From: Microbacterium oxydans
GTDB lineage: Bacteria > Actinomycetota > Actinomycetes > Actinomycetales > Microbacteriaceae
NCBI RefSeq assembly: GCF_026559675.1
Contig: NZ_CP092891.1
Span: forward strand, 1,302,001-1,366,000
Direction: 5' to 3'
DNA: 64,000 bases
Both the position numbers and the translations under genes were made by a program. Below, in pieces: positions 31,006 through 61,063 of this stretch. The notes beneath the pieces were generated by a model. The model ran no database searches. It was given only the letters and a program-made list of their open reading frames with translations, and was not told the origin of the DNA. Position 1 is the first letter of the stretch, and the number at the start of each line of letters is the position of its first letter.

Positions 31006-31053
31006 GAGAAGGACGCCACCCGCGCGATAGGCTCGCGGGGTGGCGTCCTTCTC
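31006..31053 (+). terminator. Terminator hairpin of the HtrA gene, overlapping the next gene's promoter and start
   Basis: GAGAAGGACGCCACCC (31006-31021) pairs perfectly with 31038-31053 (16 bp), extended inward by 3 bp past a one-base bulge, and is followed by CTTTCGG. The loop contains TAGGCT (31028-31033), and the descending arm contains the GTG (31040) of the TagB-like gene. One sequence therefore serves as 3' hairpin of one gene and as promoter and N-terminal codons of the next. Confidence 0.75.
31028..31033 (+). promoter_or_regulatory. -10 box, leaderless start of the first TagB/F-like gene
   Basis: TAGGCT, 6 nt before the GTG at 31040, in the loop of the 31006-31053 hairpin. A leaderless mRNA would carry only the descending arm and so escape the hairpin. 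Confidence 0.55.
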
Positions 31054-33726: not shown

Positions 33727-33744
33727 CCGCCGTTCGCCCCCGCG

Positions 33745-34818: not shown

Positions 34819-34931
34819 ATGTCGATCATGGCACGGTGTCCTCCCGCGTTCCCTGAGGGGAAGCGCCCGCGTGGCCGGGCGTGGCCTGCCCGGTCGCTGT
34901 GCACAGGCCGGGGTATCCGGCGCGGACGAAC

Positions 34932-34937
34932 TATTCT
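34932..34937 (+). promoter_or_regulatory. -10 box, leaderless start of the third TagB/F-like gene
   Basis: TATTCT, the best -10 match in the window, 6 nt before the ATG at 34944 with GGAGGG as spacer. Confidence 0.6.
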
Positions 34938-34943
34938 GGAGGG

Positions 34944-43792: not shown

Positions 43793-44866
43793 ATGGGTGC
43801 TCGGCTGCGTGTTGTTCTGGATCAGCTCGTGCAGGTCGTCGACCCCGACCAGGCCTCGGCGTCGGTCGACCTGGTGGCGGGACTCGTCGCCACGGCGCCG
43901 TCGGGGTGTGCGGTGGATGCCATCGTCACCGCGGGAGCCGAGGTGCCGGTAGCGGGCATCGAGGACGTGCGGACGCTCGCGCTCGGCAGGCGTGAGATCG
44001 CGGCCTCCTGGCAGCTCGGGATCGCCCCCGGCGTCGGCGGCGGCCTCATCCACTCGCCGACCCTGATGGCACCGCTCGTGCGGCACGATCGCGTGCACGA
44101 CAACGACCAGACGACCGTGACGCTGTGGGACCTGCGGGCCTGGGACGCACCGGAGGCACTGTCGAAGAGCGCGGTGGCGTGGCAGCGCGCCATGCTCCGA
44201 CGCGCGGTGAAGCACGCCGACGCCGTGGTCGTGCCGTCGCACGCGGTCGCCGAGCGTCTGGCCGAGCTCGTGAAGCTCGGGGGGCGGATCCGGGTGATCG
44301 CGGGTGCCGCGCCGCGGTCGTTCGCGGTTCCGGCCGATGCCGCGGCACGCCGTGAGGCGCTCGGACTGCCCGAGGAATACGTGGTGCTGGCCGGTTCGCC
44401 GGCGACGCTCGCCGAGGGATTCCGAGGTGCGCTCGCCGCCGGGGTCGATGCGGTCGTGCTCGATGCGCCGGAGGGCGCGGAGCCGCGCCTGGTGGAGATC
44501 GCCTCCGCCGCCGGGCTGCCGGAGCGGAGGGCGCACGTCCGTGGCGCGCTGTCCCCGGCGGACCGGGCAGCGGTCCTCGCCGGCGCTTCGGCCTTCGTGT
44601 CGACCGATCCCGTGGCGGGGTGGCCGTGGCGTGCCGTCGAGGCGATGACGGTCGGGACGCCGGTGGTCGCGGTCGAGAGCGGGTCGCACTGCGACGTCCT
44701 CGCCGACGGCGGGATGCTGGTGCCGGCGGAGGGCATCGCGGAAGCTGTCGCCGACGCGGCGGGCGCCTCGTCGGCGCGGCTGCGGGTGCTCGCCGCCGAC
44801 AGGTCCCGGGCCTTCTCCTGGGCGAGCTCGGCGGAGCGTCTGTGGGGGCTGCACGCCGACCTGTGA
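43793..44866 (+). CDS. GT-B glycosyltransferase (GT4-like)
   Basis: 357 residues. The N-terminal half has the acceptor-side Rossmann fold (VHDNDQTTVTLWDLRAW, VVVPSHAVAERLAEL near 145). The C-terminal half carries the GT4 nucleotide-sugar segment AFVSTDPVAGWPWRAVEAM near 265-283 and TPVVAVESGSH. The usual E-x7-E motif is only partly kept (Asp/Glu positions differ). The sugar is unknown. It stands alone between DUF4012 and the LGFP protein in a surface-polymer setting. Confidence 0.8.
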   Translation: MGARLRVVLDQLVQVVDPDQASASVDLVAGLVATAPSGCAVDAIVTAGAEVPVAGIEDVRTLALGRREIAASWQLGIAPGVGGGLIHSPTLMAPLVRHDRVHDNDQTTVTLWDLRAWDAPEALSKSAVAWQRAMLRRAVKHADAVVVPSHAVAERLAELVKLGGRIRVIAGAAPRSFAVPADAAARREALGLPEEYVVLAGSPATLAEGFRGALAAGVDAVVLDAPEGAEPRLVEIASAAGLPERRAHVRGALSPADRAAVLAGASAFVSTDPVAGWPWRAVEAMTVGTPVVAVESGSHCDVLADGGMLVPAEGIAEAVADAAGASSARLRVLAADRSRAFSWASSAERLWGLHADL

Positions 44867-44905: not shown

Positions 44906-44955
44906 AATCTTGTCGCGTAACCAGCGCAACAGTGGCATCATCCTGCAACTTCCGT

Positions 44956-44961
44956 CACACT
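44956..44961 (+). promoter_or_regulatory. Possible -10 box of the LGFP-repeat gene
   Basis: CACACT, 6 nt before the ATG at 44968. It is a weak match, but at the leaderless spacing, and no Shine-Dalgarno is present. Confidence 0.35.
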
Positions 44962-44967
44962 GGTCAC

Positions 44968-47900
44968 ATGTCTCGACGTGCCCCACGCTCGCGAAACACC
45001 CTGAGGACCTCCCCACTCCTCATCTGTTTCCTCGCTGTCTCTGCCCTGGTGATCGGGACGGCGGCCCCTGCTGCCGTCGCCCAAGCGTCCGTCTCTTCGG
45101 CTCCGGCGATCGCCTCCGGCGCTGTCTCGGGCCCCGCCGCGACAGGGATCGCGAAGAGCACCCTCGTCGGGTTCAATGCCGGCAACATCATCAGCGACGC
45201 CGTGTTCACCGACAAGCGCACGATGACCGAGCCGCAGATCCAGGCTTTCTTCAACAGCAAGGTCTCGCGCTGCCTGGGGGGGAGAGACGAGAACAACGAG
45301 GCGATCGTCTGCCTCAAGGACTTCAAGATGAACACGGTCACCCGGCCGGCGGACGCCTATTGCTCGGGATACAACGGCGCCGCGAACGAGTCGGCCGCAC
45401 GGATCATCTACCGCGTGGCGCAGGCCTGCGACATCAACCCGCAGGTGCTCATCGTGATGCTCCAGAAGGAGCAGGGCCTCATCACCCACACCTGGCCGAG
45501 CGCCTGGCGCTATCGGATCGCCCTCGGACAGGGATGCCCCGACACCGCGCCATGCGACCCGAACTACATCGGCTTCTTCCACCAGATCTACGGCGCCGCG
45601 CGCCAGATGCAGATCTACATGGAGGGCAAGTGGTTCCAGTGGTACGCCCCGGGCAAGACCTGGAACATCCTGTACAACCCGAAGGCATCCTGCGGCACCT
45701 CGCCGGTGTACGTCGCCAACAAGGCGACGTCGGCGCTCTACTACTACACGCCCTACCAGCCCAACGCGGCGGCGCTGCGTGCCGGCTACGGCGAGGGAGA
45801 CGGCTGCTCGGCATACGGCAACCGGAACTTCTACAACTACTTCACCGACTGGTTCGGTTCGACGCAGAAGCCACCGGCGTCCGACCCGCTCGGCGACATC
45901 CGGCGGGCGCACACCGGGCTCGGCGGCGCGACAGGAGTGCTCGGCGCTGCGAAGACGAACCCGACCTGCGGGGCGACGATCGCGCGGTGCACGGTGAGCT
46001 ACGCGAACGGGATCATCACCTGGACGAAGGCACTCGGCGCGCTGCCGGTCTACGGTCCCGTCTACAAGGAATATGTGGCCCAGGGTGCCCTCGGCGGAAA
46101 GCTCGGTTATCCCAAGGATTCGCCGACGACCGTCACGGATCCGAACGGCAACGGCATCGCGCAGCAGTTCGACACGGGATGGATCCATCAGTCTGCGGCG
46201 GGAGCCTTCACATCGTCGAACAGGACGATGACGGCGTACTCGGCCGCCGGATGGATCCGCGGAAAGCTCTCCTGGCCCGTGGGACCGGAGGTCTGCACCT
46301 CGAAGTCCTGCATCCAGGACTTCGGCGACGGCGTCATCGGCTCTCTCACCGGGAAGCCCGCGGTCGCCGTCGTCGGAACGAACACCAAGGCGATCGATGC
46401 GGCATACACGGCGAGCGGCGGATCCACCGGACCGCTCGGGGCGGTGAAGGACACATTCACCTTCGTCCAGGATCCGAACGGCAACGGGCTCGTGCGTCAG
46501 TTCGCGAACGGGTGGATCCATGCGTCGGCTGCGGGTGCGTTCACGACGTCGAATGCGTTGATGACGGCGTACAGTGGCGCGGGTTGGCTGCGGGGGAAGC
46601 TCGGTTGGCCGACGAGTGACGAGTCGAAGGTGACGGATCCGAACGGCAACGGTGCTGCGCAGAGTTTCCAGGGTGGGTGGATCCATTCCTCGGCGAAGGG
46701 CTCGTTCACGTCGTCGGCGCGGGTGATGTCGGCGTACAGCAAGGCTGGCTGGGTGAGGGGTTCGCTCGGGTGGCCGGTGGGCGCGGAGGTGTGCACGGGG
46801 GTTTCCTGCGCGCAGGCGTTCGCTGGTGGCATCATCTCGTTCTCGGGCACTGCTGAGGCGACGAGCACGGTGGGCATCTCGAGTGCGGCGATCGCGAAGG
46901 TGCATGCCGATCCGGCGAGCAGTCCGGTCGCGCTCGGCTCGGCGGTGGACGCGTCCGCGTCGATCGTCGCGGACCCGCGCGGCAGCGGTCTGGCGCAGAA
47001 GTTCTCCGGCGGGTGGATCCATTCCTCCGCGGCAGGGACTTTCGCCTCCTCGAACACGATCATGACGGCGTACAGCGCTGCAGGGTGGGTCAGAGGCAAG
47101 CTGGGTTGGCCGACCGGTGCGGAAACGTGCACCGCGACCTCGTGCAGCCAGGTCTTCCAGGGCGGCACCATCGCCTATCAGAAGGGCAAGGCTGCGGTTC
47201 TCCTGCTGGGGGTCGAGGGCGATGCGATCGACGTCGCCTACGCCGCGCAGGGAGGAGCCGCGGGAGCACTGGGAGCGGCGGCCGCACAGCTCACCTTCGT
47301 CCAGGATCCGAACGGCAACGGGCTCGTGCGTCAGTTCGCGAACGGGTGGATCCATGCGTCGGCTGCGGGTGCGTTCACGACGTCGAATGCGTTGATGACG
47401 GCGTACAGTGGCGCGGGTTGGCTGCGGGGGAAGCTCGGTTGGCCGACGAGTGACGAGTCGAAGGTGACGGATCCGAACGGCAACGGTGCTGCGCAGAGTT
47501 TCCAGGGTGGGTGGATCCATTCCTCGGCGAAGGGCTCGTTCACGTCGTCGGCGCGGGTGATGTCGGCGTACAGCAAGGCTGGCTGGGTGAGGGGTTCGCT
47601 CGGGTGGCCGGTGGGCGCGGAGGTGTGCACGGGGGTTTCCTGCGCGCAGGCGTTCGCTGGTGGCATCATCTCGTTCTCGGGCACTGCTGAGGCGACGAGC
47701 ACGGTGGGCATCTCGAGTGCGGCGATCGCGAAGGTGCATGCCGATCCGGCGAGCAGTCCGGTCGCGCTCGGCTCGGCGGTGGACGCGTCCGCGTCGATCG
47801 TCGCGGACCCGCGCGGCAGCGGTCTGGCGCAGAAGTTCTCCGGCGGGTGGATCCATTCCTCCGCGGCAGGGACTTTCGCCTCCTCGAACACGATCATGAC

Positions 47901-48048
47901 GGCGTACAGCGCTGCAGGGTGGGTCAGAGGCAAGCTGGGTTGGCCGACCGGTGCGGAAACGTGCACCGCGACCTCGTGCAGCCAGGTCTTCCAGGGCGGC
48001 ACCATCAACTACGTGAAGGGGAAGGCAGCGACCGTCGTCTACCGCTGA
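44968..48048 (+). CDS. Secreted LGFP-repeat protein with putative lytic domain
   Basis: 1026 residues. A Sec signal peptide (about 1-40) is followed by a ~250-residue Cys-rich domain. It contains VLIVMLQKEQGLITHTWP near 170 and GFFHQIYGAARQMQIYM, reminiscent of lysozyme-like muramidases (the Glu of KEQGL would be catalytic; inference). The rest is repeats of the LGFP type, built on GWIHxSAxGxF, TAYSxAGWxRGKLGWP and ExC; GWIH occurs seven times. LGFP repeats are thought to bind mycolyl/arabinogalactan or other wall glycans. Residues ~497-735 and ~775-1013 are identical, from a repeated 716-bp block. Confidence 0.87.
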   Translation: MSRRAPRSRNTLRTSPLLICFLAVSALVIGTAAPAAVAQASVSSAPAIASGAVSGPAATGIAKSTLVGFNAGNIISDAVFTDKRTMTEPQIQAFFNSKVSRCLGGRDENNEAIVCLKDFKMNTVTRPADAYCSGYNGAANESAARIIYRVAQACDINPQVLIVMLQKEQGLITHTWPSAWRYRIALGQGCPDTAPCDPNYIGFFHQIYGAARQMQIYMEGKWFQWYAPGKTWNILYNPKASCGTSPVYVANKATSALYYYTPYQPNAAALRAGYGEGDGCSAYGNRNFYNYFTDWFGSTQKPPASDPLGDIRRAHTGLGGATGVLGAAKTNPTCGATIARCTVSYANGIITWTKALGALPVYGPVYKEYVAQGALGGKLGYPKDSPTTVTDPNGNGIAQQFDTGWIHQSAAGAFTSSNRTMTAYSAAGWIRGKLSWPVGPEVCTSKSCIQDFGDGVIGSLTGKPAVAVVGTNTKAIDAAYTASGGSTGPLGAVKDTFTFVQDPNGNGLVRQFANGWIHASAAGAFTTSNALMTAYSGAGWLRGKLGWPTSDESKVTDPNGNGAAQSFQGGWIHSSAKGSFTSSARVMSAYSKAGWVRGSLGWPVGAEVCTGVSCAQAFAGGIISFSGTAEATSTVGISSAAIAKVHADPASSPVALGSAVDASASIVADPRGSGLAQKFSGGWIHSSAAGTFASSNTIMTAYSAAGWVRGKLGWPTGAETCTATSCSQVFQGGTIAYQKGKAAVLLLGVEGDAIDVAYAAQGGAAGALGAAAAQLTFVQDPNGNGLVRQFANGWIHASAAGAFTTSNALMTAYSGAGWLRGKLGWPTSDESKVTDPNGNGAAQSFQGGWIHSSAKGSFTSSARVMSAYSKAGWVRGSLGWPVGAEVCTGVSCAQAFAGGIISFSGTAEATSTVGISSAAIAKVHADPASSPVALGSAVDASASIVADPRGSGLAQKFSGGWIHSSAAGTFASSNTIMTAYSAAGWVRGKLGWPTGAETCTATSCSQVFQGGTINYVKGKAATVVYR
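46457..47172 (+). repeat. 716-bp direct repeat, copy 1, in the LGFP gene
   Basis: Identical, as far as I can read, to 47291-48006 (period 834 bp, in frame). It starts at TCACCTTCGTCCAGGATCC and ends at GGCGGCACCATC. The flanking sequences just outside each copy are homologous but diverged. Confidence 0.9.
47291..48006 (+). repeat. 716-bp direct repeat, copy 2, in the LGFP gene
   Basis: Second copy of 46457-47172. The 118-nt spacer 47173-47290 encodes a diverged version of the segment that precedes copy 1 (AYQKGKAAVLLLG against SLTGKPAVAVVG), so identity is confined to the block. Confidence 0.9.
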
Positions 48049-48098: not shown

Positions 48099-49094
48099 AT
48101 GAGAGTACTGCTCACCGGAGCTGACGGATTCATCGGATCGCACCTCGCGGAGCAGCTGGTTCGGGACGGACACGACGTGCGAGCCCTGGTGCTCTACAAC
48201 TCGTTCGACTCCCGCGGCTGGCTCGACGGAATCCCCGACGAGGTCGCGCGCGAGATCGAGTTCCTGCCCGGAGACGTGCGTGATCCGGCTCTGATGATGT
48301 CGGCCGTGAGCGACCGCGACGCGGTGCTGCACCTGGCCGCGCTCATCGCCATCCCGTACTCGTACGCGGCCCCCGACCTGTATGTGCAGACGAACATCCA
48401 GGGCACGCTCAACCTGCTCAACGCCGCCCGCGCGGCCGGAGTCAGCCGATTCATCCACACCTCGACGAGCGAGGTCTACGGCACGGCGCGGTACGTGCCC
48501 ATGGATGAGGGGCACCCCCTGCAGGGGCAGTCGCCCTACTCGGCGTCGAAGATCGCGGCGGACCAGATGGTGAACGCATACCACGCATCCTTCGGCCTGC
48601 CCGCGGTCACGATCCGTCCGTTCAACACCTTCGGCCCGCGGCAGTCGGCTCGCGCCGTGATTCCGACGATCGTGAGCCAGCTCGCGGCCGGCAAGCGGGA
48701 AATCCAGCTCGGCGCGCTCACGCCGACCCGCGACTTCACGTACGTGCCCGACACGGTCTCCGGCTTCACGACGGCGCTGACCAGCACCGCAGGCGTCGGC
48801 GAAGTCATCAACCTGGGCGTCGGCTTCGAGGTCTCGATCGGGCAGACCTTCGATCTCATCGCCGAGGTCATGGGGGTCGACGCCGTCGCCACCGAGGATC
48901 CGGCACGTCTGCGTCCCGCGAACTCCGAGGTGGAGCGGCTCTTCTCCGACAACACCAAGGCTCGCGAGATCCTCGGCTGGCAGCCGAAGCACGATGGTGT
49001 CGACGGTTTCCGCGAGGGCCTCCGCGCCACGGCGGAGTGGTTCACCGACCCGGCCAACCTGGCGCGTTACCGCACCGACGCGTACGTCGTATGA
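48099..49094 (+). CDS. legB: NAD-dependent sugar-nucleotide 4,6-dehydratase, LegB type
   Basis: 331-residue extended SDR enzyme. The NAD site is LLTGADGFIGSHLAEQL, and the LegB-typical ALVLYNSFDSRGWLD follows near 32. HLAALIAIPYSYAAPDLYV, TSTSEVYGTARYVP, the catalytic YSASKIAADQ and RPFNTFGPRQSARAVIP complete the pattern. LegB removes water from GDP- (or UDP-) GlcNAc to give the 4-keto-6-deoxy sugar, the first dedicated step to legionaminic acid. The YSASK and PRQSAR signatures match LegB better than PseB. ATGA overlap with legC. Confidence 0.9.
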   Translation: MRVLLTGADGFIGSHLAEQLVRDGHDVRALVLYNSFDSRGWLDGIPDEVAREIEFLPGDVRDPALMMSAVSDRDAVLHLAALIAIPYSYAAPDLYVQTNIQGTLNLLNAARAAGVSRFIHTSTSEVYGTARYVPMDEGHPLQGQSPYSASKIAADQMVNAYHASFGLPAVTIRPFNTFGPRQSARAVIPTIVSQLAAGKREIQLGALTPTRDFTYVPDTVSGFTTALTSTAGVGEVINLGVGFEVSIGQTFDLIAEVMGVDAVATEDPARLRPANSEVERLFSDNTKAREILGWQPKHDGVDGFREGLRATAEWFTDPANLARYRTDAYVV

Positions 49095-50248
49095 GCACGC
49101 CCGAGGACTTCGTCCGCACCATCCGCGGCGTCGTCGGCGATGAGCCGTTCGTCGGCCTCCACGTGCCCGACATCACGGAGCTCGAGAAACAGCGCGTCCG
49201 GGAGTGTCTGGACTCGACCTTCGTGTCGAGCGTGGGTGCCTTCGTGACCGATTTCGAGCAGGGCATCGCCGACTTCACCGGAGCCCGGCATGCGATCGCC
49301 GTGTCCAACGGCACCTCGGCGCTGCAGGTGGCGCTCGAACTCGCCGGAGTCGGTGACGGTGACGACGTGATCGTCCCGACCCTGTCCTTCGTGGCCACAG
49401 CGAATGCTGTCTCACATGTGAGGGCACAGCCGTACTTCGTCGACAGCGACGAGGGGACGCTGGGACTCTCCGTCGAGGCCGTCGCCGAGGTGCTGCGATC
49501 TGCACGGTCCACCCCCGAGGGGTTGATGAACGCCGCCACCGGACGTCGCATCGCCGCGATCGTGCCGATGCACACGCTCGGTCATCCGATGCGCATCGCG
49601 GAGCTCGTCGCGCTGGCCGCGGAGTACGAGGTCCCGGTGATCGAGGATGCGGCCGAGTCGCTCGGCAGCCGGGTGGACGGCGTGCACACGGGCACGTTCG
49701 GACGTCTGGGCATCCTCAGCTTCAACGGGAACAAGATCCTGACCACGGGCGGCGGCGGGATGATCCTCACCGATGACGATGAGCTCGCCCGCAGAGCACG
49801 CCATCTCACGACCACCGCCAAGCTGCCGCATCGCTGGGAGTTCGAGCACGACGAGGTGGCGTACAACTTCCGGATGCCGAACCTCAACGCCGCGCTCGGA
49901 GTCGCGCAGCTCGAGCGGTTGCCCCGGTTCCTCGCCGACAAACGGCGACTCGCGGAGCGCTACCGACTGGCCTTCGCCGACGTCCCCGACATCGAGTTCC
50001 TGACCGAACCGGCGGGTACCGAGAGCAACTACTGGCTGTGCGCGGTGCGTGTGTCCGGTGATGACCGACGGCGCGACGCCCTCCTCGAAGCGACGAACGA
50101 CGCCGGTCTCCAGTGCCGTCCGTTCTGGAACCTGCTGCATCGACAGGCGCCGTACCGGCACCTGCCCCACGCGGCGGTGCCCGTCGCAGAGTCGCTGCAC
50201 GCGTCCGTCGTCTGCATCCCGAGCTCCCCGGCGCTGGCCGCGGTATGA
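49091..50248 (+). CDS. legC: LegC-type sugar aminotransferase (DegT/AryC1/EryC1)
   Basis: 385 residues. Family hallmarks include FVGLHVPDITELEKQRV and ECLDSTFVSSVGAFVTDFE at the N-terminus, SNGTSALQVAL (PLP phosphate), IEDAAESLGS (Asp) and the Schiff-base Lys in SFNGNKILTTGGGG near 215. LegC transfers an amino group to C4 of the 4-keto sugar, giving the 4-amino-4,6-dideoxy intermediate. The N-terminal VSSVG signature separates it from perosamine-type relatives. Overlaps legB and legG by 4 nt each. Confidence 0.9.
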   Translation: MSTPEDFVRTIRGVVGDEPFVGLHVPDITELEKQRVRECLDSTFVSSVGAFVTDFEQGIADFTGARHAIAVSNGTSALQVALELAGVGDGDDVIVPTLSFVATANAVSHVRAQPYFVDSDEGTLGLSVEAVAEVLRSARSTPEGLMNAATGRRIAAIVPMHTLGHPMRIAELVALAAEYEVPVIEDAAESLGSRVDGVHTGTFGRLGILSFNGNKILTTGGGGMILTDDDELARRARHLTTTAKLPHRWEFEHDEVAYNFRMPNLNAALGVAQLERLPRFLADKRRLAERYRLAFADVPDIEFLTEPAGTESNYWLCAVRVSGDDRRRDALLEATNDAGLQCRPFWNLLHRQAPYRHLPHAAVPVAESLHASVVCIPSSPALAAV

Positions 50249-51414
50249 GATCGATCGCCGTCGTCACGGGCACCCGTGCGGACTATGGCCTGCTGCGGGG
50301 GCTGCTTCGGGCGCTCGAGGACGATCCGCAGCTGGATCTGCGTCTGATCGTGACGGGCACCCACCTCAGCGAGGCCTTCGGACAGACCGTCACGGAGATC
50401 GAGCGCGACGGCTTCACCATAGCCGCGACCGTGCCGATCTGGTCGGGTGCGGATACTCCGCTCGCGGCGGCGACCGACGTGGGGCGCGCCCTGCCCGGTT
50501 ACGCGCAGGTGCTGGCAGAGATCGCGCCGGACGTCGTCGTGGTGCTCGGGGACAGGTTGGAGGCCTTCGCTGTGGCGGCGGCTGCGACGATCCTGTCGAT
50601 CCCGGTCGCGCACATCCACGGCGGGGAGCTCACGGAGGGCGCGATGGACGACGCCCTCCGGCACTCGATCACCAAGATGTCCTATCTGCACTTCACATCG
50701 ACGGCAGATCATCGTCGGCGGGTGATTCAGCTGGGAGAGGACCCCGCGCGCGTGTTCTTCCACGGCGCGCCGATCGTCGACATCCTCGACACGTTCGACG
50801 CGATGCCGCGTCACGAAGTGGAGGAGCGATTCGGCATCCGACTGCCCGAGCCGACGGCGCTGGTGACGTTCCACCCGGCGATCATGGACGTCGCACCGGC
50901 CGAACAGCTGGTTGAGGAGCTCCTCGCGGGGCTGCTCGCCGTGACGGACCTGCATATCGTGATCACGGGATCGAACTCGGACATCGGCACGGAGGCAGTC
51001 CGCGCGAGGATCGCGCGTTTCGTCTCCGAGCATCCCGAGCGCGTCGACTACGTCGAGTCGTTCGGGCAGCGCGCGTACCTCAGCGCGATGCGCGCGGCAT
51101 CGGTCGTGGCGGGGAACTCGTCGAGCACGGTTCTCGAGGCGCCCACGCTGGGCATACCTTCCGTGCTCATCGGCGACCGCCAGAAGGGTCGGCCGATGGC
51201 CGCGAGCGTGGAGATTCCCGACCCCACGGCCGAGGCCATCGCTGCTGCGATTCGACGGCGCATCGCCGCGGGTCCGGCTGTCGCCGCCGACAGCCCCTTC
51301 GGTACACCGGGATTCGCGGTTCGTACCGCTGCGACGCTTCGGGATGTGGAGATCCCGAAGCCCCCCAAGAAGACTTTCCACGATCTCGAACAGGGAGATG
51401 ACGATGACCGCTGA
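50245..51414 (+). CDS. legG: Hydrolysing sugar-nucleotide 2-epimerase, LegG/NeuC type
   Basis: 389 residues, NeuC/LegG subgroup of the UDP-GlcNAc 2-epimerase family. VVTGTRADYGLLRGLL begins it, then LIVTGTHLSEAFGQT, VVLGDRLEAFAVAAAA, IHGGELTEGAMDDALRHSI and VAGNSSSTVLEAP near 295. The GTRADYG and HGGE(L)TEGAxDD signatures are those of the hydrolysing enzymes, unlike the WecB at 59799. It would release 2,4-diacetamido-2,4,6-trideoxy-mannose. It overlaps legI by 11 nt. Confidence 0.9.
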   Translation: MRSIAVVTGTRADYGLLRGLLRALEDDPQLDLRLIVTGTHLSEAFGQTVTEIERDGFTIAATVPIWSGADTPLAAATDVGRALPGYAQVLAEIAPDVVVVLGDRLEAFAVAAAATILSIPVAHIHGGELTEGAMDDALRHSITKMSYLHFTSTADHRRRVIQLGEDPARVFFHGAPIVDILDTFDAMPRHEVEERFGIRLPEPTALVTFHPAIMDVAPAEQLVEELLAGLLAVTDLHIVITGSNSDIGTEAVRARIARFVSEHPERVDYVESFGQRAYLSAMRAASVVAGNSSSTVLEAPTLGIPSVLIGDRQKGRPMAASVEIPDPTAEAIAAAIRRRIAAGPAVAADSPFGTPGFAVRTAATLRDVEIPKPPKKTFHDLEQGDDDDR

Positions 51415-52501
51415 CGTCTTTGTGATTGCGGAGGCGGGAGTGAACCACAACGGTTCGCTCGGCATCGCCAAGGAACTTGTGGATCTCGCTGCGGAAGCCG
51501 GTGCCGACGCGGTGAAGTTCCAGACCTTCTCCGCCGACGCGCTCGCGCTCGAATCCGCAGAGCTCGCCGACTACCAGCGGGTCTCCGGTGAGGACGCGCG
51601 CAGTCAGCACGACCTCCTCCGTGGACTCGAGCTTTCGCACGACGAGTTCCGTGAGCTGCGTGCGCACTGCGATGGTCGTGGGATCCGGTTCCTCTCCACG
51701 GCGTTCGACCTCGACGGCCTCGACTTCCTCATCGACGAGCTGGGCATCCCGCTCGTCAAGATCGCGTCCGGCGACCTCACGTTCGCGCCGCTGCTGGTCA
51801 AGGCCGGGCGCAGCGGACTGCCCGTGATCCTGTCCACGGGAATGGCGGACCTGAGCGAGATCGCACGCGCGTTGCGGTTCTTGGCCGCAGGACTGGCACA
51901 GAGGCATGGTGTTCTGGATCGGTCCGAGCGTGTCACCGAGGATGCGCTCACGACCGCGTGGCACGCGCGGAACGAGCACGTCCGATTCGACGAGCACGTG
52001 ACGATCCTGCACTGCACCACGGAGTATCCGGCTGCGGACGAGCACCTGAACCTTCGGGCGATGCAGACCATCGCAGACACCTTCGGGCACCGTGTCGGCT
52101 ACTCCGACCATTCGCTCGGGTCGCTGGCATCGGTGCTCGCCGTCGGTCTGGGGGCGACCGTTCTCGAGAAGCACTTCACCTTCGACGTCACCGCGGACGG
52201 GCCCGATCATGCCGCATCGCTGGACCCCGACGGGCTGCGCGACTATGTCGCGGCACTGCGCCGCGTGCCGACCATGCTCGGGTCGTCGGAGAAGAAGGCG
52301 CAGAGCGTCGAAGAGGGCAACCGCGCGGTCGTGCGGCGCAGCCTGGTGGCCACGCGCGACATCGCCGCAGGAGAAGTGGTCGCGGAGGATGACATCGCGT
52401 GCTTCCGACCCGCCACGGGCCGGACCTCCTTCGATTTCTGGGAGGTCGTCGGCCGCCCGGCGTCCCGGGCCTACCGTCGTGGTGAGCTCATCGATGACTG
52501 A
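51404..52501 (+). CDS. legI: Legionaminic acid synthase (NeuB/LegI family)
   Basis: 365-residue PEP-dependent nonulosonic acid synthase: VIAEAGVNHNGSLGIAKEL at the start (metal/PEP site), AVKFQTFSAD, IKIASGDLTF-like KIASGDLTF, STGM, LHCTTEYPA, GYSDHSLG and LEKHFTFD. A C-terminal antifreeze-like SAF domain follows (SLVATRDIAAGEVV near 305-345). It condenses the trideoxy-mannosamine with PEP. Two ATGs are possible (51398, 51404); GGGAG at 6 nt favours 51404. Confidence 0.92.
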   Translation: MTADVFVIAEAGVNHNGSLGIAKELVDLAAEAGADAVKFQTFSADALALESAELADYQRVSGEDARSQHDLLRGLELSHDEFRELRAHCDGRGIRFLSTAFDLDGLDFLIDELGIPLVKIASGDLTFAPLLVKAGRSGLPVILSTGMADLSEIARALRFLAAGLAQRHGVLDRSERVTEDALTTAWHARNEHVRFDEHVTILHCTTEYPAADEHLNLRAMQTIADTFGHRVGYSDHSLGSLASVLAVGLGATVLEKHFTFDVTADGPDHAASLDPDGLRDYVAALRRVPTMLGSSEKKAQSVEEGNRAVVRRSLVATRDIAAGEVVAEDDIACFRPATGRTSFDFWEVVGRPASRAYRRGELIDD

Positions 52502-53138
52502 GCTGATCCTGCTCGGAGGCGGCGGACACGCGAAATCCGTCCTCGCCGCGCTGCGCGCCCTCGAGCTGGCCGTCCGGGGGTACCTCGCTCCGCATGCCGG
52601 CGACCTCGGGACAGACTGCCCGTACCTCGGCGGCGATGATGTGCTCGGCACGCTGGATCCGAACGAGGTGCTGTTCGTCAACGGACTCGGCTCGACCGCG
52701 TCCACGGCAGCCAGGCGTGACCTGTACACGCGTGCCGCCGCCCGAGGATTCCGCGCTGCGCAGATCGTGCACCCGCGCGCGTTCGTCGACCCCGGGGCTC
52801 AGCTGAGCGGCGGTGTGCAGGTTCTCGCCGGGGCGTTCGTGAACAGCGGTGCGGTCATCGGGGAGAACGCCCTGATCAACTCCGGCGCGATCGTCGAGCA
52901 CGATGTCGTGGTCGGGGCGCACGTGCATGTCTCGCCCGGGGCGGTGGTCGCGGGAGGCGTGCGGATCGGCGAGGGTGCCCATGTGGGTCTCGGCGCCCGC
53001 GTCATCCAGGGCGTGACCCTGGGATCCGGTAGCGTCATCGGGGCCGGTGCCGTCGTGATCAGGGACGTCCCGGCAGGGACGGTCGTCGTCGGCGTGCCGG
53101 CCAGAACGATCGCAGCGAAGAGGGGAGAGACCGCATGA
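52494..53138 (+). CDS. Left-handed beta-helix sugar acetyltransferase (NeuD/PglD type)
   Basis: 214 residues. An N-terminal Rossmann-like part (LILLGGGGHAKSVLAAL) leads into hexapeptide repeats (VQVLAGAFVNSGAVIGENALINSGAIVEH and following) ending GVPARTIAA. It has the PglD/NeuD architecture: acetyl-CoA-dependent N- or O-acetylation of a sugar. In this operon it is the only acetyltransferase, so the likely role is LegH, N-acetylation at C4 of the amino sugar before LegG. An O-acetylation role on the finished nonulosonate is the alternative. It overlaps legI by 8 nt and the next gene by 4 nt. Confidence 0.82.
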   Translation: MTELILLGGGGHAKSVLAALRALELAVRGYLAPHAGDLGTDCPYLGGDDVLGTLDPNEVLFVNGLGSTASTAARRDLYTRAAARGFRAAQIVHPRAFVDPGAQLSGGVQVLAGAFVNSGAVIGENALINSGAIVEHDVVVGAHVHVSPGAVVAGGVRIGEGAHVGLGARVIQGVTLGSGSVIGAGAVVIRDVPAGTVVVGVPARTIAAKRGETA

Positions 53139-54178
53139 GCTCGAACACCGACCTGTCTCTGCAGCCGGGCACCAGCATCCGCGATGCGCTCACTCAGCTC
53201 GATCGCAGCCGGCGTCAGGTGGTCTTCGTCGAGGATGCTGAGGGACGGCTCATCGGCGCCGTGAGCGACGGTGACATCCGGCGCGGCCTGCTTGCCGGTG
53301 CGTCTCTGGAGGACCGGGTCGACCGGGTGATGAATCCCGACCCGGCATCGGTCCCGCCGAACGCCAGTCAGGAGGACGTCGACGAGCTGAAGGCGCGGCG
53401 CGGCATCCGCGTGGTCGCCGTCGTCGACGATGAACGCATCGTCGACGTCGTCGGAGAAGGCGAGCACATCGCCACTCCGATTCCGACCCCCGTCGTGCTG
53501 ATGGCGGGAGGACGGGGCCAGCGCCTCTACCCCATCACCAAGGACATCCCGAAGCCCCTCGTCCCGCTGGGGGACACCCCGATGATCGACATCATCCTCA
53601 GCAGGCTGCACGGCCAGGGGTTCCGCAGGGTCCATGTCTCCATCAACCACCTCGGACACCTCATCGAGCAGCACCTGGGCGACGGCAGTGCGCATGGGCT
53701 GGAGATCTCGTATCTCCACGAGCCGATGCCCTTGGGCACGGCCGGCGCGATGGCCCAGCTACGTGGAGAGATCGGCGCGCCTTTCGTCGTCATGAATTCC
53801 GATCTGCTCACCGATGTCGACCTGAGACGGATGCTCGGGTTCCATCTCGACGCCCGGGCGGATGCGACCATCGGCGCGCGCGAGTACGGATTCGAGATCC
53901 CGTACGGTGTGATCCGCCGTGATGGAGATCGCGTGACGGGACTCGCGGAGAAGCCATACCACAGCGAGCTCGTGAGCGCCGGAATCTACGTGCTCGAACC
54001 GAGCGCGCTCGAGTTGCTGGAACAGGACGAGTACTGCGACATGCCCACGCTGTTGTCGCGCCTGATGGATGCCGAGCGTTCCGTCGCAGCGTATGAGATC
54101 CGCGACGAGTGGATCGACGTGGGTCGACCGGAAGACCTCGAACGCGCCAGGCTGGCGTGGGAACGGAGAAGCAGATGA
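53135..54178 (+). CDS. ptmE: CBS-domain nucleotidyltransferase, PtmE-like
   Basis: 347 residues: two CBS motifs (about 10-110; QVVFVEDAEGRLIGAVSDGD) are fused to a nucleotidyltransferase domain starting VVLMAGGRGQRLYPITKDIPKP near 118. Then come NHLGHLIEQ, MNSDLLTDVDL and ERSVAAYEIRDEWIDVGRPED. This fusion is characteristic of PtmE, which makes GDP-glucosamine or GDP-GlcNAc for the legionaminic pathway in Campylobacter. Its presence suggests that the route here also uses GDP-linked intermediates. CBS pairs may bind an adenine nucleotide for control. Confidence 0.85.
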   Translation: MSSNTDLSLQPGTSIRDALTQLDRSRRQVVFVEDAEGRLIGAVSDGDIRRGLLAGASLEDRVDRVMNPDPASVPPNASQEDVDELKARRGIRVVAVVDDERIVDVVGEGEHIATPIPTPVVLMAGGRGQRLYPITKDIPKPLVPLGDTPMIDIILSRLHGQGFRRVHVSINHLGHLIEQHLGDGSAHGLEISYLHEPMPLGTAGAMAQLRGEIGAPFVVMNSDLLTDVDLRRMLGFHLDARADATIGAREYGFEIPYGVIRRDGDRVTGLAEKPYHSELVSAGIYVLEPSALELLEQDEYCDMPTLLSRLMDAERSVAAYEIRDEWIDVGRPEDLERARLAWERRSR

Positions 54179-54870
54179 GGATCTGTACGATCACCGTGCG
54201 GGCCGGATCGAAGGGCGTGCCGGGCAAGAACCTCCGCGTCGTCGCAGGGCGGCCGATGTTCGGGCACTCCGTGGCGCAGGCTGCCGCGACCGGTCTCTTC
54301 GATGAAGTCGTCGTCTCGAGTGATTCGGAGGAGATCCTGGCACTCGCCCCGACGTTCGGCGCCACAGGTGTCGTGCGGCGCCCCGCCGAGATGGCCACCG
54401 ACACCGCGGGCAAAGTCCCGGCCATCGCGCATGCCGTGCGAACGACGGAGCAGCGAACCGGCGATACCTACGATGTGTGCGTCGACCTCGATGCGACCAG
54501 CCCGTTGCGCACGCTCGATGACATCCGCACGGCGGTGCGGATGTTCGAGGAGTCGGATGCCGCCTCGTTGATCACAGGCGCGGAGGCGCGACGGAACCCG
54601 TACTTCAACCTCGTCGAGGAGCAGCCTGACGGGACCGTCGCCGTCAGCAAGCAGCCGGATGACGCGGTGCTCCGGCGCCAGGACGCGCCGCGCTGCTTCG
54701 ACATGAACGGCTCGATCTACGTCTGGCGGCGCGAGTCGCTGCTGGAGGACCAGGTCGTGTTCCTTCCGTCGACGATTCTCTACGAGATGCCCGCCGAGCG
54801 GTCCATCGACGTGGACAGCGAGTTCGACTTCCGCATCGTCGAGTGGCTCATGGGGCAGCGGGATGACTGA
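54175..54870 (+). CDS. legF: CMP-legionaminic acid synthetase (cytidylyltransferase)
   Basis: 231 residues of the CMP-NeuAc synthetase family. ITVRAGSKGVPGKNLR (CTP loop) at the start, DEVVVSSDSEEIL, RPAEMATDTAGKVPAIAHA, VDLDATSPLRTLDDI and DVDSEFDFRIVEWL at the end are canonical. It activates the nonulosonate to its CMP form, the donor for a transferase. It is the last gene of the overlapping run. After it, 68 nt separate it from the ABC exporter permease gene. Specificity for Leg over NeuAc or Pse is inferred from the operon. Confidence 0.88.
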   Translation: MRICTITVRAGSKGVPGKNLRVVAGRPMFGHSVAQAAATGLFDEVVVSSDSEEILALAPTFGATGVVRRPAEMATDTAGKVPAIAHAVRTTEQRTGDTYDVCVDLDATSPLRTLDDIRTAVRMFEESDAASLITGAEARRNPYFNLVEEQPDGTVAVSKQPDDAVLRRQDAPRCFDMNGSIYVWRRESLLEDQVVFLPSTILYEMPAERSIDVDSEFDFRIVEWLMGQRDD

Positions 54871-54938: not shown

Positions 54939-55886
54939 ATGAGTGGGCCTGTGACTGACACCCGAGATCTTTTCGCCGCCGTCCCGCGTACGGAGTTCAC
55001 AACCCCCGGCAAGAGTCGTGGGCTGATCGATGTGGTGCGCTGGCGGTATCTTCTGATCCTCCTGGTCCGTACCGGTGTGACGACGCGCTACCGTAATTCG
55101 GTCCTCGGTTGGACGTGGTCGTACGTTCGACCGGCCGCGCAGTTCCTCGTGTTCTGGGTCGTCCTCGGCCTGTTCATGAAGCTGGATCACGGCATCCCCA
55201 ATTACGCCGTGTACCTGTTCTCCGGCATCGTCGTCATCAACCTCTTCTCGGAGGCGTTCAAGAACGCGACGACGTCGATCGTGGGGAATGCGCCGCTCGT
55301 GCGGAAGGTCTTCCTGCCGCGGCAGCTCTTCGCCGTATCGGCCGTGATCGTGGCGTTCGTGCATTTCCTTCCCCAGGTCGGTCTGCTCCTCGTCGTTTGT
55401 CTGCTGCTCGGCTGGGCCGCGCACCTCTCCATCCTCTCGGTACTGGCCATCTTCGCGGCCATGATCATCGTGATGCTCTTCGCGCTGGGTCTCGGACTGT
55501 TCTTCGGCGCAGTCAACGTGCGTTATCGCGACGCCGAGAACATCGTCGAACTGATGCTGTTGCTGGCCACCTGGGCGTCCCCGGTGCTCTATTCCTGGGC
55601 CGCGGTGCAGGATGCCGTCAAGACTCTCGGCTGGCCGGACTGGCTGCTGGAGATGTACCTCCTCAACCCGATCACCCAGGGCGTCGAGCTCTTCCACTTC
55701 GCGTTCTGGCGCCCGGCCACCGAGGGAATGATCTCCGCTGCGGGCTACGTCGGTCCGCAGCTCGAAGCAATACCGCCCGGCCTCGGCTGGAACACTCTCT
55801 GGACGTTCCTCATCGCCGTGGGCACCCTGCTCCTGGGGCAGATCGTCTTCCGCCGCCTCGAAGGAAGGTTCGCACAGGACCTATGA
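54939..55886 (+). CDS. ABC-2 polysaccharide exporter permease (Wzm/TagG-like)
   Basis: 315-residue ABC-2 membrane protein with six helices between ~60 and 300. Signatures of polysaccharide exporters are TTRYRNSVLGWTWSYVRPAAQF near 40-60, FLPRQLFAVSAV, NVRYRDAENIVEL and WASPVLYSW. Together with the next gene it would move a completed lipid-linked polymer to the outer face. The start may be ATG 54939 or GTG 54951. The gap before it holds TAGACTG and TAGTTT hexamers but no firm promoter. Confidence 0.9.
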   Translation: MSGPVTDTRDLFAAVPRTEFTTPGKSRGLIDVVRWRYLLILLVRTGVTTRYRNSVLGWTWSYVRPAAQFLVFWVVLGLFMKLDHGIPNYAVYLFSGIVVINLFSEAFKNATTSIVGNAPLVRKVFLPRQLFAVSAVIVAFVHFLPQVGLLLVVCLLLGWAAHLSILSVLAIFAAMIIVMLFALGLGLFFGAVNVRYRDAENIVELMLLLATWASPVLYSWAAVQDAVKTLGWPDWLLEMYLLNPITQGVELFHFAFWRPATEGMISAAGYVGPQLEAIPPGLGWNTLWTFLIAVGTLLLGQIVFRRLEGRFAQDL

Positions 55887-56620
55887 GTTCTCCTCACACG
55901 CTCCGTCCGAGCATCATCATCGACGGTGTGAAGAAGCGCTTCACGCTGAATCACGCGTTCTCTCTCAAGGACACCGTCGTGTCCTGGATCAAACGTCGCA
56001 AGCTGACGAGCGAGTTCGAAGCCCTCAAGGGCGTCGACATCGTGATCGGTGAAGGCGAATCCGTCGCCGTGCTTGGTCTCAACGGCTCTGGAAAGTCCAC
56101 GCTCCTCAAGCTCGTTTCCGGAGTCATGGAACCGGACGATGGAACGGTGCTGACCCGCGGACGCGTTGCCGGTCTCATCGAGGTCGGAGCCGGGTTCCAC
56201 CCCGAACTCTCCGGCCGCGAGAACGTCTTCCTCAACGCAGCGATCCTCGGGATGAAGCAGCGCGAGATCGAGGCGCGATACGACGAGATCGTGGCATTCA
56301 GCGAGATCGAGCAGTTCATCGACCAGGAGGTCAAGCACTACTCGTCGGGGATGTTCATGCGTCTCGCGTTCTCGGTGGCGATCCACGTCGAGCTCGATGT
56401 GCTCCTCGTAGACGAGATCCTCTCGGTGGGTGATGCACCGTTCCGTGAGAAGTGCCGGCTCAAGTTCGAAGAGCTCATCGAGCAGGGCAAGACTCTCGTC
56501 GTCGTCAGCCACGACATGGAGATGGTTCGACAGCTCTGCGCCCGCGGCATCGTCATCGACAAGGGCGTTGTCGTGTACGACGGCGAGGTCGAGGGCGCGA
56601 TCGCGTTGGTCGACGCATGA
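55883..56620 (+). CDS. Polysaccharide exporter ATP-binding protein (Wzt/TagH-like)
   Basis: 245 residues. Walker A AVLGLNGSGKSTLLKL near 70, AGLIEVGAGFHPELSGREN (the TagH/Wzt-specific segment), signature HYSSGMFMRLAFSVA, Walker B LLVDEILSVGDAPF and VVSHDMEMVRQLC. The long N-terminal stretch before Walker A (RFTLNHAFSLKDTVVSWIK) is typical of TagH/Wzt. No C-terminal carbohydrate-binding domain is present, so chain-terminus recognition as in O9a Wzt is not expected. ATGA overlaps on both sides tie it to the permease and the DUF6541 gene. Confidence 0.92.
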   Translation: MSSPHTLRPSIIIDGVKKRFTLNHAFSLKDTVVSWIKRRKLTSEFEALKGVDIVIGEGESVAVLGLNGSGKSTLLKLVSGVMEPDDGTVLTRGRVAGLIEVGAGFHPELSGRENVFLNAAILGMKQREIEARYDEIVAFSEIEQFIDQEVKHYSSGMFMRLAFSVAIHVELDVLLVDEILSVGDAPFREKCRLKFEELIEQGKTLVVVSHDMEMVRQLCARGIVIDKGVVVYDGEVEGAIALVDA

Positions 56621-58500
56621 TCGAAAGCTGGCTGTCGGCGGCCCCTGCCGTGGGATTCGCCGTGCTGCTCATCGTCGCACCCGGCCTGCCCGCCGCACTT
56701 CTCTTCCGTCTGCGCGGGGCAATGCTCCTGGGAGCGTCGATCGCGCTGTCGCTCGCCGTCGTCGGGATTGCGACCGCCGTCGCTCCGCTTCTCGGAATCG
56801 CCTGGTCGATCCTGCCCGTGCTGCTGATCGCCGTGCTCCTCACGGCAGTCGCCGCAGGCCTGCGCATCCTCGGGAGAGGACGGTTCGCTGTGCTGGGCGG
56901 CGAGACGCGGGCGGTCTGGCTCGGTATGGGCGCGGCCGCCGTCCTCTGGGCGGTCATCCTGATGGTCGGGATCGGTGGGGCTGAACACCCTTCTCAGCTG
57001 TACGACGGGCTGTTTCACCTCAACGCCGTCGAATTCATCCTTCAGACCGAGGATGCCTCGCCTTTCCACATGACGATGGCGGTGCCCGGAGCCACGTCGG
57101 CTTTCTACCCGACTCTGTGGCACGCGCTCGTATCGCTCGTGGTCCCGGCGGCGTCGGGCGTCGTCGCGGCGACGAACGCCGTGACGATCGCGGTGATCGC
57201 GGTGGGGTGGCCGGCCGCGATCGCGACTCTCACCGCGGTGCTCTTCGCTCGTTACCGCACGGCGTCCGTGTGGGCGCCGCTGCTGTCCCTCGGGTTCAGC
57301 GTCATGCCGCTCGGTTTCCTCAACTGGGGCGTGCTCTACCCGAACCTGCTGGGGACGATACTGATCCCCGTGCTCATCGCCGTCACCGTGCTCGCATCGC
57401 GGAGGGGAATCGGCGGATATCAGCGGGTGTCCCTTCTGATCGTGCTTCTGGCAGCGATCGGTGCAACTGCCCTCGCGCATCCTTCTGCACTGCTCGCGGG
57501 GCTCGCCCTGCTGGTTCCCTTCGGGCTCTGGTGCGCATGGCGCGCGTGGACGGGTGCCGCTACCCGGAGCCGCGTGCTGCTGGCGCTCTCGGTCGTGGTG
57601 GGCCTCGTCGTGCTCGGATTCATCTGGCATCTGGCGAACGTGACCACCCACGAGTGGCAGCCGGGGGCGACTCTCGCTCAGGCGATCGGTGAAGTCGCGT
57701 TCCTCAGCCCGGTGGGACGCAGCACCGGACTTCTCCTGGGCCCGCTTGCCGCGATCGGGATATGGAGGGTGGTGAAGGATCGGCAGTGGTGGATCCTCGG
57801 GTCATACGCCGTGAGCGTGTTCTTCTTCGCAGTGTCGACCTGGTTGCCTCTGCCCGCTCTGCGCAGTGCCATCGTCGGCGTCTGGTATGACGACACCACG
57901 AGAGTCGGCGCGCTGCTGGCCGTCTTCGGTCTGCCCCTCGCCGCGCTCGGCGCCCACCTGGTGTGGTCGTGGCTCGTGGCACTGTGGCGGGACGGACGTC
58001 GATCGCTCCTGATCATCGCTGCGGTCGTGCTCGTCGCACTGGGGCTCACGCATCTGTCCGCCCTCGCGAACGACCTCCGCTTCATGCGGGGGACGAGTTT
58101 CAGGTTCGATGCCCAATCGCAGGGTCTCACGCCCGACGAAGCGGCGCTTTTCGAGCGGATTCCCGACGATGTCGATGGACCTCTTCTGGGTGACCCGCTC
58201 ACGGGAGCAGGCCTCGTCTACGCATACACGGGCCACCCGGTCGTCTTCCCGCACGTCACGGGCCGTTACGGGGCGGACGCCGATCTCCTCGCCCGCTATC
58301 TGGCGACCGGCGACGCCGAGGTGTGCGACGCGCTCGAGTCGCTCGGCGTCGAGTACGTCTTCGACTTCGGGGATCGGGAGATCTTCGAGAATCACTTCAC
58401 GACCTATGAAGGTCTGCACGGTTTGGACCAGTCGTCGATCCTCACCGAAGTCGACCGTGAGGGTGACGCCGTCCTCTACGAAGTGACGGGTTGCCGCTGA
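56617..58500 (+). CDS. DUF6541-type multi-spanning membrane protein
   Basis: 627 residues with about 13 hydrophobic helices over residues 1-500 and a ~110-residue soluble C-terminal end containing GLTPDEAALFERIPDDVDG. The early segment YDGLFHLNAVEFILQTEDAS near 125-145, with Asp, His and Asn, and PTLWHALVSLV are reminiscent of GT-C fold transferases, whose catalytic Asp lies in the first external loop. I recognise it as the actinobacterial DUF6541 group seen in polysaccharide clusters. A polyprenyl-phosphate-sugar-dependent transferase role is inference. Confidence 0.75.
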   Translation: MIESWLSAAPAVGFAVLLIVAPGLPAALLFRLRGAMLLGASIALSLAVVGIATAVAPLLGIAWSILPVLLIAVLLTAVAAGLRILGRGRFAVLGGETRAVWLGMGAAAVLWAVILMVGIGGAEHPSQLYDGLFHLNAVEFILQTEDASPFHMTMAVPGATSAFYPTLWHALVSLVVPAASGVVAATNAVTIAVIAVGWPAAIATLTAVLFARYRTASVWAPLLSLGFSVMPLGFLNWGVLYPNLLGTILIPVLIAVTVLASRRGIGGYQRVSLLIVLLAAIGATALAHPSALLAGLALLVPFGLWCAWRAWTGAATRSRVLLALSVVVGLVVLGFIWHLANVTTHEWQPGATLAQAIGEVAFLSPVGRSTGLLLGPLAAIGIWRVVKDRQWWILGSYAVSVFFFAVSTWLPLPALRSAIVGVWYDDTTRVGALLAVFGLPLAALGAHLVWSWLVALWRDGRRSLLIIAAVVLVALGLTHLSALANDLRFMRGTSFRFDAQSQGLTPDEAALFERIPDDVDGPLLGDPLTGAGLVYAYTGHPVVFPHVTGRYGADADLLARYLATGDAEVCDALESLGVEYVFDFGDREIFENHFTTYEGLHGLDQSSILTEVDREGDAVLYEVTGCR

Positions 58501-60956: not shown

Positions 60957-61063
60957 GTCCGGCGACATCGTCCGTTCTGCGCCGCATCGTGCGGGTTGAA
61001 CGGGCAGATGCTCCGCAGTTCCATCGTTCGCAGGTCGACAGAGAGAGGTCGGGTGAGCACTTC

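What the first reader, a model, noticed from the sequence alone, without database searches (positions are those of the whole stretch)
48099..54870. Complete CMP-legionaminic acid pathway in one overlapping actinobacterial operon
Seven genes with 4-11 nt overlaps encode LegB, LegC, LegG, LegI, a PglD/NeuD-type acetyltransferase, a PtmE-like CBS-nucleotidyltransferase and LegF, each with its signature motifs. From established knowledge, this is the Campylobacter-type route to CMP-Leg5,7Ac2, a bacterial sialic-acid analogue usually described on Gram-negative flagella or LPS. Here there is no flagellar gene, and the neighbours are wall-polymer and export genes. Early glucosamine steps (GlmS/GlmM/GlmU functions) are not in the window and would come from core metabolism.
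Basis: partly seen in the sequence, partly recalled or inferred. Interest (0 to 1): 0.82.

Follow-up and report, generated by a model that had tools for sequence, protein, structure and literature searches.

The report
Legionaminic-acid operon missing its usual transferase
This Gram-positive bacterium (Microbacterium) carries a seven-gene set for making a bacterial relative of sialic acid, but lacks an uncharacterised enzyme gene that its close relatives carry right beside that set, which points to candidate enzymes for attaching the sugar to the cell surface.

Summary
In detail: seven intact + strand genes (48099-54870), overlapping by 4, 4, 11, 8, 4 and 4 nt, match LegB, LegC, LegG, LegI, LegH (NeuD/PglD type), a PtmE-like CBS-nucleotidyltransferase and LegF. 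The synthase falls with other Leg-locus synthases, apart from PseI and Kdn-type ones. By its relatives the genome is a Microbacterium; 9 of 149 genomes sampled in the genus have the operon. The cassette is known from Gram-negatives: a new member of a known kind.

The less expected part is downstream. In all 12 distinct genomes read where legF is followed by wzm, a ~485-aa gene without a Pfam match lies between them: GT-B by a confident model, with HP and S/T motifs as in sialyltransferases (motif meaning recalled). It is the obvious candidate CMP-Leg transferase. The window genome lacks it. Instead, 12.5 kb downstream, its cluster holds another GT-B protein whose five other strong matches in 366 Microbacterium genomes each lie next to a Kdn-type synthase. 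I propose replacement; this is inference.

Corrections: the genome has flagellar genes and a second, Kdn-type locus; ptmA/ptmF are not in the operon; the GDP route is untested.

The parts
43793..44866 (+). GT4-type glycosyltransferase, conserved upstream neighbour
   Evidence: Pfam Glyco_trans_1_4/Glycos_transf_1; seen upstream of the Leg operon in relatives
44932..48048 (+). LGFP-repeat protein, conserved upstream neighbour
   Evidence: Pfam LGFP 198 bits; internal repeat at spacing 834 nt
48099..49094 (+). legB, NDP-HexNAc 4,6-dehydratase
   Evidence: TIGR04180 460.7 bits, cut-off 475, next model 166
49091..50248 (+). legC, PLP aminotransferase
   Evidence: TIGR04181 504 bits over cut-off 420
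50245..51414 (+). legG, hydrolysing 2-epimerase (NeuC family)
   Evidence: TIGR03568 380 bits over cut-off 236
51404..52501 (+). legI, legionaminic acid synthase with SAF domain
   Evidence: TIGR03569 407 over 400, PseI 237 under 340; PF03102 + PF08666; Leg side of the tree
52494..53138 (+). legH, NeuD/PglD-type N-acetyltransferase
   Evidence: TIGR03570 202 over 161; hexapeptide repeats
53135..54178 (+). ptmE-like CBS + nucleotidyltransferase
   Evidence: PF00571 + PF00483; a nucleotidyltransferase in the same slot in cassettes of other phyla
54175..54870 (+). legF, CMP-legionaminate synthetase
   Evidence: PF02348; PseF model 127 under 206; CMP-NeuAc synthetase 1eyr 118 bits
54871..54950 (.). 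spacer where relatives carry a ~485-aa GT-B gene (candidate CMP-Leg transferase), absent here
54939..55886 (+). wzm, ABC-2 polysaccharide export permease (GTG 54951 more likely the start)
   Evidence: PF01061; GTG context shared with relatives
55886..56620 (+). wzt, export ATPase
   Evidence: PF00005; teichoic acid and galactan exporter models score best but under cut-off
56617..58500 (+). DUF6541 membrane protein
   Evidence: PF20176 451 bits
58567..59802 (+). UDP-ManNAc dehydrogenase (WecC type)
   Evidence: NF008286 536 over 459
59799..60956 (+). UDP-GlcNAc 2-epimerase (WecB type)
   Evidence: TIGR00236 445 over 210
60989..62233 (+). GT4-type glycosyltransferase
   Evidence: Pfam GT4 domains

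Best explanation
The operon makes CMP-5,7-di-N-acetyllegionaminic acid from an NDP-GlcNAc precursor. LegB dehydrates, LegC aminates, LegH acetylates, LegG removes the nucleotide and epimerises, LegI condenses with phosphoenolpyruvate, LegF activates with CTP, and the PtmE-like enzyme makes the nucleotide sugar at the entry. The sugar is built into a surface polysaccharide exported by the adjacent Wzm/Wzt. In related Microbacterium genomes the transfer step is most likely done by the GT-B protein encoded between legF and wzm. The window genome has lost that gene, and I propose that a different GT-B transferase in the same cluster (about G000:C1:1369417-1370682, minus strand) took over. Shown: gene content, order, conservation, presence and absence of the transferase genes. 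Inferred: reactions, product, polymer, loss rather than non-gain, and replacement.
For: Families and overlaps. Synthase tree. Low dN/dS. LegC over cut-off in 9 of 149 genus genomes; the A1 transferase profile scores 737-898 bits in exactly the other 8, and finds nothing in the window genome. Fisher p 8e-11, counting all 10 genomes with any A1 match and not correcting for relatedness. No Pfam match at E<=1 (3 members). GT-B model pLDDT 92.9, matching among many others bacterial polysialyltransferase 5wcn/5wc6. One source names one member 'alpha-2,8-polysialyltransferase family protein'. The second transferase (A3): 6 strong matches in 366 genus genomes; in the 5 others it lies directly downstream of a Kdn-type synthase, the slot that DUF6716 holds in the window genome's own Kdn-type locus.
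Against: No chemistry. Fold matches are mostly UDP-GlcNAc 2-epimerases, so the fold does not name the donor; UniRef names two A2 members (P0150, P0168) as such epimerases, and most named members are 'hypothetical'. A2 homologues without a synthase match in the fetched 20 kb: G001 and G381. No A2 match in the held stretch of the Leg loci L028/L068, L069, L079, L031, L032 and L035, so it is not the only solution; in L025 it lies 10 kb from legF on the other strand. The window's second transferase is only 37-38% identical to the Kdn-linked ones and on another branch; A2 against A3 gives 0.5% HHalign probability. G043 has DUF6716 as well as an A3 protein. LegB misses its cut-off by 14 bits. Flagellin is an alternative acceptor.
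Confidence: 0.62

Rival explanations
1. The operon makes CMP-Leg, but in this genome it is an orphan: the transferase gene is missing, nothing replaced it, and the sugar is not placed on the surface.
For: The linked transferase is absent from its position and from the genome; the proposed substitute is assigned by association only.
Against: All seven genes are intact with low dN/dS against L014, LegF lowest at 0.025, though the time since the loss is unknown.
Confidence: 0.2
2. Leg goes onto flagellin rather than a wall polymer, as in Campylobacter.
For: Flagellin at 165 bits and a flagellar gene run in the genome.
Against: The operon lies about 370 kb from the flagellin gene and, in the 12 genomes read, one gene away from Wzm/Wzt. 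No PF01973 match in the genome, but the controls rang only in archaea, so this is weak. I recognised no transferase by eye among ORFs called around flagellin; these proteins were not profile-searched.
Confidence: 0.12
3. The product is another nonulosonic acid (a different N-acyl Leg, 8-epi-Leg, or Neu5Ac).
For: Sequence cannot fix stereochemistry or acyl group; LegF and LegB do not reach an equivalog cut-off; true NeuB was not in the tree.
Against: LegB and LegC are not needed for Neu5Ac (established knowledge); LegC is over its cut-off and the four Pse models that matched are under theirs.
Confidence: 0.15
4. One of the other cluster glycosyltransferases (GT4 or GT2 types, 60989-62233 and within L003:2027-9442) transfers Leg here, and the minus-strand protein has another role.
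For: They lie in the same cluster.
Against: They belong to families that usually use NDP-sugars (Pfam assignment; donor use recalled). Their linkage to synthases in other genomes was not examined, while the A3 family shows it.
Confidence: 0.15

Closest known systems
Plesiomonas shigelloides / Vibrio fischeri / E. coli Elg Leg cassette (PMC4481668, passages seen)
   Same: LegB, LegI, LegH, PtmE and LegF are rows of the cluster table seen
   Different: That table also lists PtmF, and the paper describes a ptmA mutant; there the sugar serves flagella. The window operon has neither gene and adjoins a Wzm/Wzt exporter in a Gram-positive
Campylobacter jejuni GDP-linked CMP-Leg pathway (recalled; cited in passages of PMC6137143 and PMC4481668)
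   Same: Set of Leg enzymes plus PtmE
   Different: PtmA/PtmF not in the operon; nucleotide specificity untested; acceptor differs
Bacillus subtilis sps Leg pathway (PMC7439481, passages seen)
   Same: Gram-positive Leg synthesis; the nearest solved synthase is SpsE (157 bits)
   Different: Spore crust; different gene set; its CMP-Leg transferase is not identified in the passages seen
Kdn-type locus, as at G000:C1:2967948-2971484
   Same: Nonulosonate synthase, CMP synthetase and a GT in a row
   Different: Synthase without SAF domain, CMP synthetase fused to a phosphatase domain (KDN-9-phosphatase model 105, under its cut-off 180), DUF6716 transferase; no LegB/LegC
Bacterial polysialyltransferase (5wcn, 5wc6)
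   Same: GT-B fold; HP and S/T motifs (motif roles recalled)
   Different: No sequence match of the profile to it in the PDB; structural match no better than to 2-epimerases

Membership tests
CMP-legionaminic acid pathway | LegC aminotransferase | tested here: met
   TIGR04181 504.3 over 420
CMP-legionaminic acid pathway | LegB 4,6-dehydratase | tested here: inconclusive
   TIGR04180 460.7, cut-off 475; next model 165.9
CMP-legionaminic acid pathway | Hydrolysing 2-epimerase LegG | tested here: met
   TIGR03568 380.1 over 235.9; the model is shared with NeuC
CMP-legionaminic acid pathway | LegI synthase grouping with Leg-locus synthases | tested here: met
   29 Leg rows on one side of a branch, support 99/96; no true NeuB row in the tree; one unlabelled row (L094) lies inside
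CMP-legionaminic acid pathway | NeuD/PglD-type acetyltransferase LegH | tested here: met
   TIGR03570 202.4 over 160.8
CMP-legionaminic acid pathway | LegF CMP-Leg synthetase | tested here: inconclusive
   PF02348 met; PseF model 127.4 under 205.7, no Leg-specific model among the hits
CMP-legionaminic acid pathway | Leg5,7Ac2 produced | not testable with these tools
   needs chemistry
Campylobacter-type GDP-linked Leg route | PtmE guanylyltransferase | not testable with these tools
   CBS + NTP_transferase architecture only; nucleotide not inferable
Campylobacter-type GDP-linked Leg route | ptmF/ptmA in the cluster | tested here: not met
   Not among the seven genes; the rest of the genome was not searched for them
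Pseudaminic acid pathway | PseB/PseC/PseI/PseF models over cut-off | tested here: not met
   61 vs 408, 224 vs 424, 237 vs 340, 127 vs 206
Known sialyltransferase families (candidate transferases) | Sequence match to a Pfam family | tested here: not met
   3 members of the legF-wzm family and the window genome's A3 protein: no Pfam match at E<=1
Known sialyltransferase families (candidate transferases) | GT-B fold with CMP donor | tested here: inconclusive
   GT-B fold found; donor not testable

The most novel reading that the evidence does not exclude
Actinobacteria use at least three distinct GT-B families as CMP-nonulosonate transferases: the legF-wzm family (A2), DUF6716, and the A3 family (the fold of DUF6716 was not modelled here). 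Leg and Kdn-type loci swap them; in the window genome a transferase of the Kdn-linked A3 family has replaced the lost A2-type Leg transferase, changing linkage or acceptor while keeping the sugar.
Probability: 0.35. Interest if true: 0.65.

Novelty: new variant of a known kind. Interest (0 to 1): 0.5.

Why it matters
Transferases for CMP-Leg are poorly known: in B. subtilis the two neighbouring glycosyltransferases were reported not to be it, with a caveat about compensation (PMC7439481, passages). Here genome context names two families without a Pfam assignment (A2, A3) and gives a natural comparison: relatives with the linked gene and one genome without it. It also places a Leg cassette, mostly described from flagella and LPS, in a Gram-positive surface-polysaccharide locus, in a genome that has a Kdn-type locus as well.

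Tried and rejected
Pse pathway: rejected; the four Pse models that matched are under cut-off and the tree separates. Second class of LegC homologues in the genus (20 genomes at 314-388 bits, under the cut-off of 420): not Leg in the two loci read (L073, L081), where they lie with LegB/LegH homologues of 29-39% and no synthase was found in the 20 kb. The A3 protein as an orthologue of the missing transferase: rejected (HHalign 0.5% probability, E 0.11; hmmsearch -2 bits). Fold as proof of donor: rejected; for A2 the first Foldseek row is a capsule multienzyme (8qoy) and most others are 2-epimerases, which lead the A3 lists too. PDB sequence searches with both profiles gave one chance-level row each. 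A plus-strand ORF at L003:5607-6452 was scanned first (no family) before the minus-strand gene was seen. Maf-like PF01973: no match, weak test. TRF on the LGFP gene found nothing, the period being over its limit; the repeat finder and a script did.

Rows dropped or chosen: alignment A2 used L014 plus 72 of the 120 listed proteins (fragments and near copies left out; 162 passed E 1e-3); A3 used 39 of 43. The synthase tree left out 3 of 49 rows as duplicates, and 6 of its 46 rows were in no group; the tool warned of long branches between the PseI and Kdn-type sides. In the A3 tree the row L089 as cut ran one codon past its natural stop. The A1 match in G091 (18 bits) and the A3 matches in G100 (20 bits) and G157 (19 bits) were treated as noise; G091 was still counted as positive in the Fisher test. 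L015, L026, L030, L077 and L078 are short or cut and say nothing on the slot after legF.

Literature: eight searches. 'legionaminic' with 'Microbacterium' gave 0 papers in the held library. This says nothing of subscription journals, where I recall chemical work on teichulosonic acids of actinomycetes; of that I saw only a reference title, in PMC13274773. Passages only were seen of PMC13274773, PMC7439481, PMC7725333, PMC6137143, PMC7371886 and PMC4481668.
Full report
What is there. The window is G000:C1:1302001-1366000 of a single-contig genome. Its nearest named relatives are Microbacterium. Seven + strand genes run from 48099 to 54870 with overlaps of 4, 4, 11, 8, 4 and 4 nt. NCBIfam and Pfam give LegB (460.7 bits, cut-off 475), LegC (504 over 420), a NeuC-type epimerase (380 over 236), a NeuB-type synthase with SAF domain (407 over 400; PseI 237 under 340), a NeuD-type acetyltransferase (202 over 161), a CBS + NTP_transferase protein without equivalog, and a cytidylyltransferase (PseF model 127 under 206). 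Against the orthologues in L014, dN/dS is 0.025 to 0.19.

Is it Leg? In a tree of 46 synthases, 29 rows from loci found through LegC lie on one side of a branch (99/96), 4 annotated PseI on one (100/100) and 7 Kdn-type on one (100/100); 6 rows were unlabelled, and one of them (L094, without LegB/LegC neighbours) lies on the Leg side. The window row sits with L014 and other Microbacterium. True NeuB was not included, so the case against Neu5Ac rests on LegB and LegC being present. In Rhizobium sp. WL3 and a Sphingomonadaceae plasmid the record annotates LegB, LegC, epimerase, synthase, acetyltransferase, nucleotidyltransferase, one further gene (an oxidoreductase in the first, hypothetical in the second), cytidylyltransferase and an oxidoreductase in that order; Aestuarium has a similar run with generic names. 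By homology the run is also in Roseateles, and in Paenibacillus without a LegH match. PMC4481668 (passages) lists the cassette with PtmF in Plesiomonas. PMC7725333 (passages) reported the GDP route in 93 of 96 C. jejuni genomes and the UDP route in 10 other genomes. The operon is therefore a known cassette in a less expected host, and the GDP route is not shown.

Distribution. LegC is over its cut-off in 9 of 149 genus genomes, the window's own included, and in 9 of 299 family genomes, own included. The window genome also has a Kdn-type locus at L005:9949-13485: DUF6716, a short NeuB-family synthase, and a CMP synthetase fused to a phosphatase domain. DUF6716 is in 89 of 149 genus genomes; its context was read only in the window genome.

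The missing transferase. In 9 of 9 named loci that contain both legF and wzm (L014, L016-L023), about 1.5 kb separates them and encodes a ~485-aa protein starting at the legF stop. In the window the legF stop is at 54870 and the likely wzm start at 54951. The A1 profile of that protein scores 737-898 bits in 8 genus genomes, which are exactly the other 8 LegC-positive ones; G001 has a distant match (302 bits) and G091 a trivial one; the window genome has none. Reading all 8 loci shows the gene between legF and wzm each time. A wider profile finds in the window genome only its DUF6716 protein, at 19 bits.

Where else it lies. In other genera homologues follow legF (G215, G350, L027, the last weak), or lie in the same locus as a Leg operon (G258, L025), or near other synthases (G189, G229, and G325, a 36-bit match). 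G381 and G001 show no synthase in the 20 kb fetched. The Leg loci L028/L068, L069, L079, L031, L032 and L035 show no homologue in the stretch held. So the link is strong within Microbacterium and looser beyond it.

A substitute in the window genome. Downstream of the window the cluster continues with glycosyltransferases, an ABC exporter and galactofuranosyl genes (GlfT2 by Pfam; a UDP-galactopyranose mutase by eye only). Among them a 421-aa protein on the minus strand (L003:5418-6683, G000:C1:1369417-1370682, 12.5 kb after legF) has no Pfam match, a confident GT-B model (pLDDT 91.3), and HPRSD and ASGVAWEASALG motifs. In 366 genus genomes 6 have a strong match (459-543 bits). In the 5 others the gene is the next one downstream of a Kdn-type synthase (L064, L087-L090), the slot of DUF6716 in the window genome. 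So the family is tied to nonulosonate transfer, and its presence in the one Leg cluster of this sample that lacks the usual gene suggests replacement. Against this: only 37-38% identity to the Kdn-linked ones, a separate branch, minus orientation in a plus-strand cluster, G043 keeping DUF6716 as well, and a single genome. I hold replacement at about 0.35.

Acceptor. Wzm/Wzt, DUF6541, WecB/WecC and LGFP neighbours argue for a surface polysaccharide. The genome has flagellin and a flagellar gene run, so flagellin cannot be excluded.

Verdict. The pathway is real and of a known kind. The interest lies in the transferase slot: it gives named, testable candidates for a step left open in B. subtilis (PMC7439481, passages).

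Noticed in passing
L005:9949-13485 (G000:C1:2967948-2971484, minus): Second nonulosonate locus of Kdn type: DUF6716 transferase, short NeuB-family synthase, CMP synthetase fused to a phosphatase domain (KDN-9-phosphatase model 105, under its cut-off 180).
   Followed up: partly
window 46457-48006: The LGFP gene holds an exact 716-nt repeat at spacing 834 nt (46457-47172 and 47291-48006), so identical blocks recur in one protein.
   Followed up: partly
L099, L100 (G083, G022): Two Leg operons have no legH match between legI and the ptmE-like gene, which may mean a different or relocated N-acyltransferase.
   Followed up: no
L062 (G000:C1:965000-984999): Flagellar gene run with flagellin in the same genome.
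   Followed up: partly
L073, L081: Second class of LegC homologue under the cut-off, with LegB/LegH-like genes and no synthase found, perhaps a bacillosamine-type sugar.
   Followed up: no
L028: Frigoribacterium MAG with a Leg operon and, about 3 kb upstream of its legB (7 kb from its legI), a synthase of the PseI clade.
   Followed up: partly
L003:2027-4263: Tandem pair of similar-looking glycosyltransferase genes in the cluster.
   Followed up: no
window 31040-36230: Three ORFs with CDP-glycerol glycerophosphotransferase domains (161, 298 and 32 bits), pointing to a teichoic acid locus nearby.
   Followed up: no
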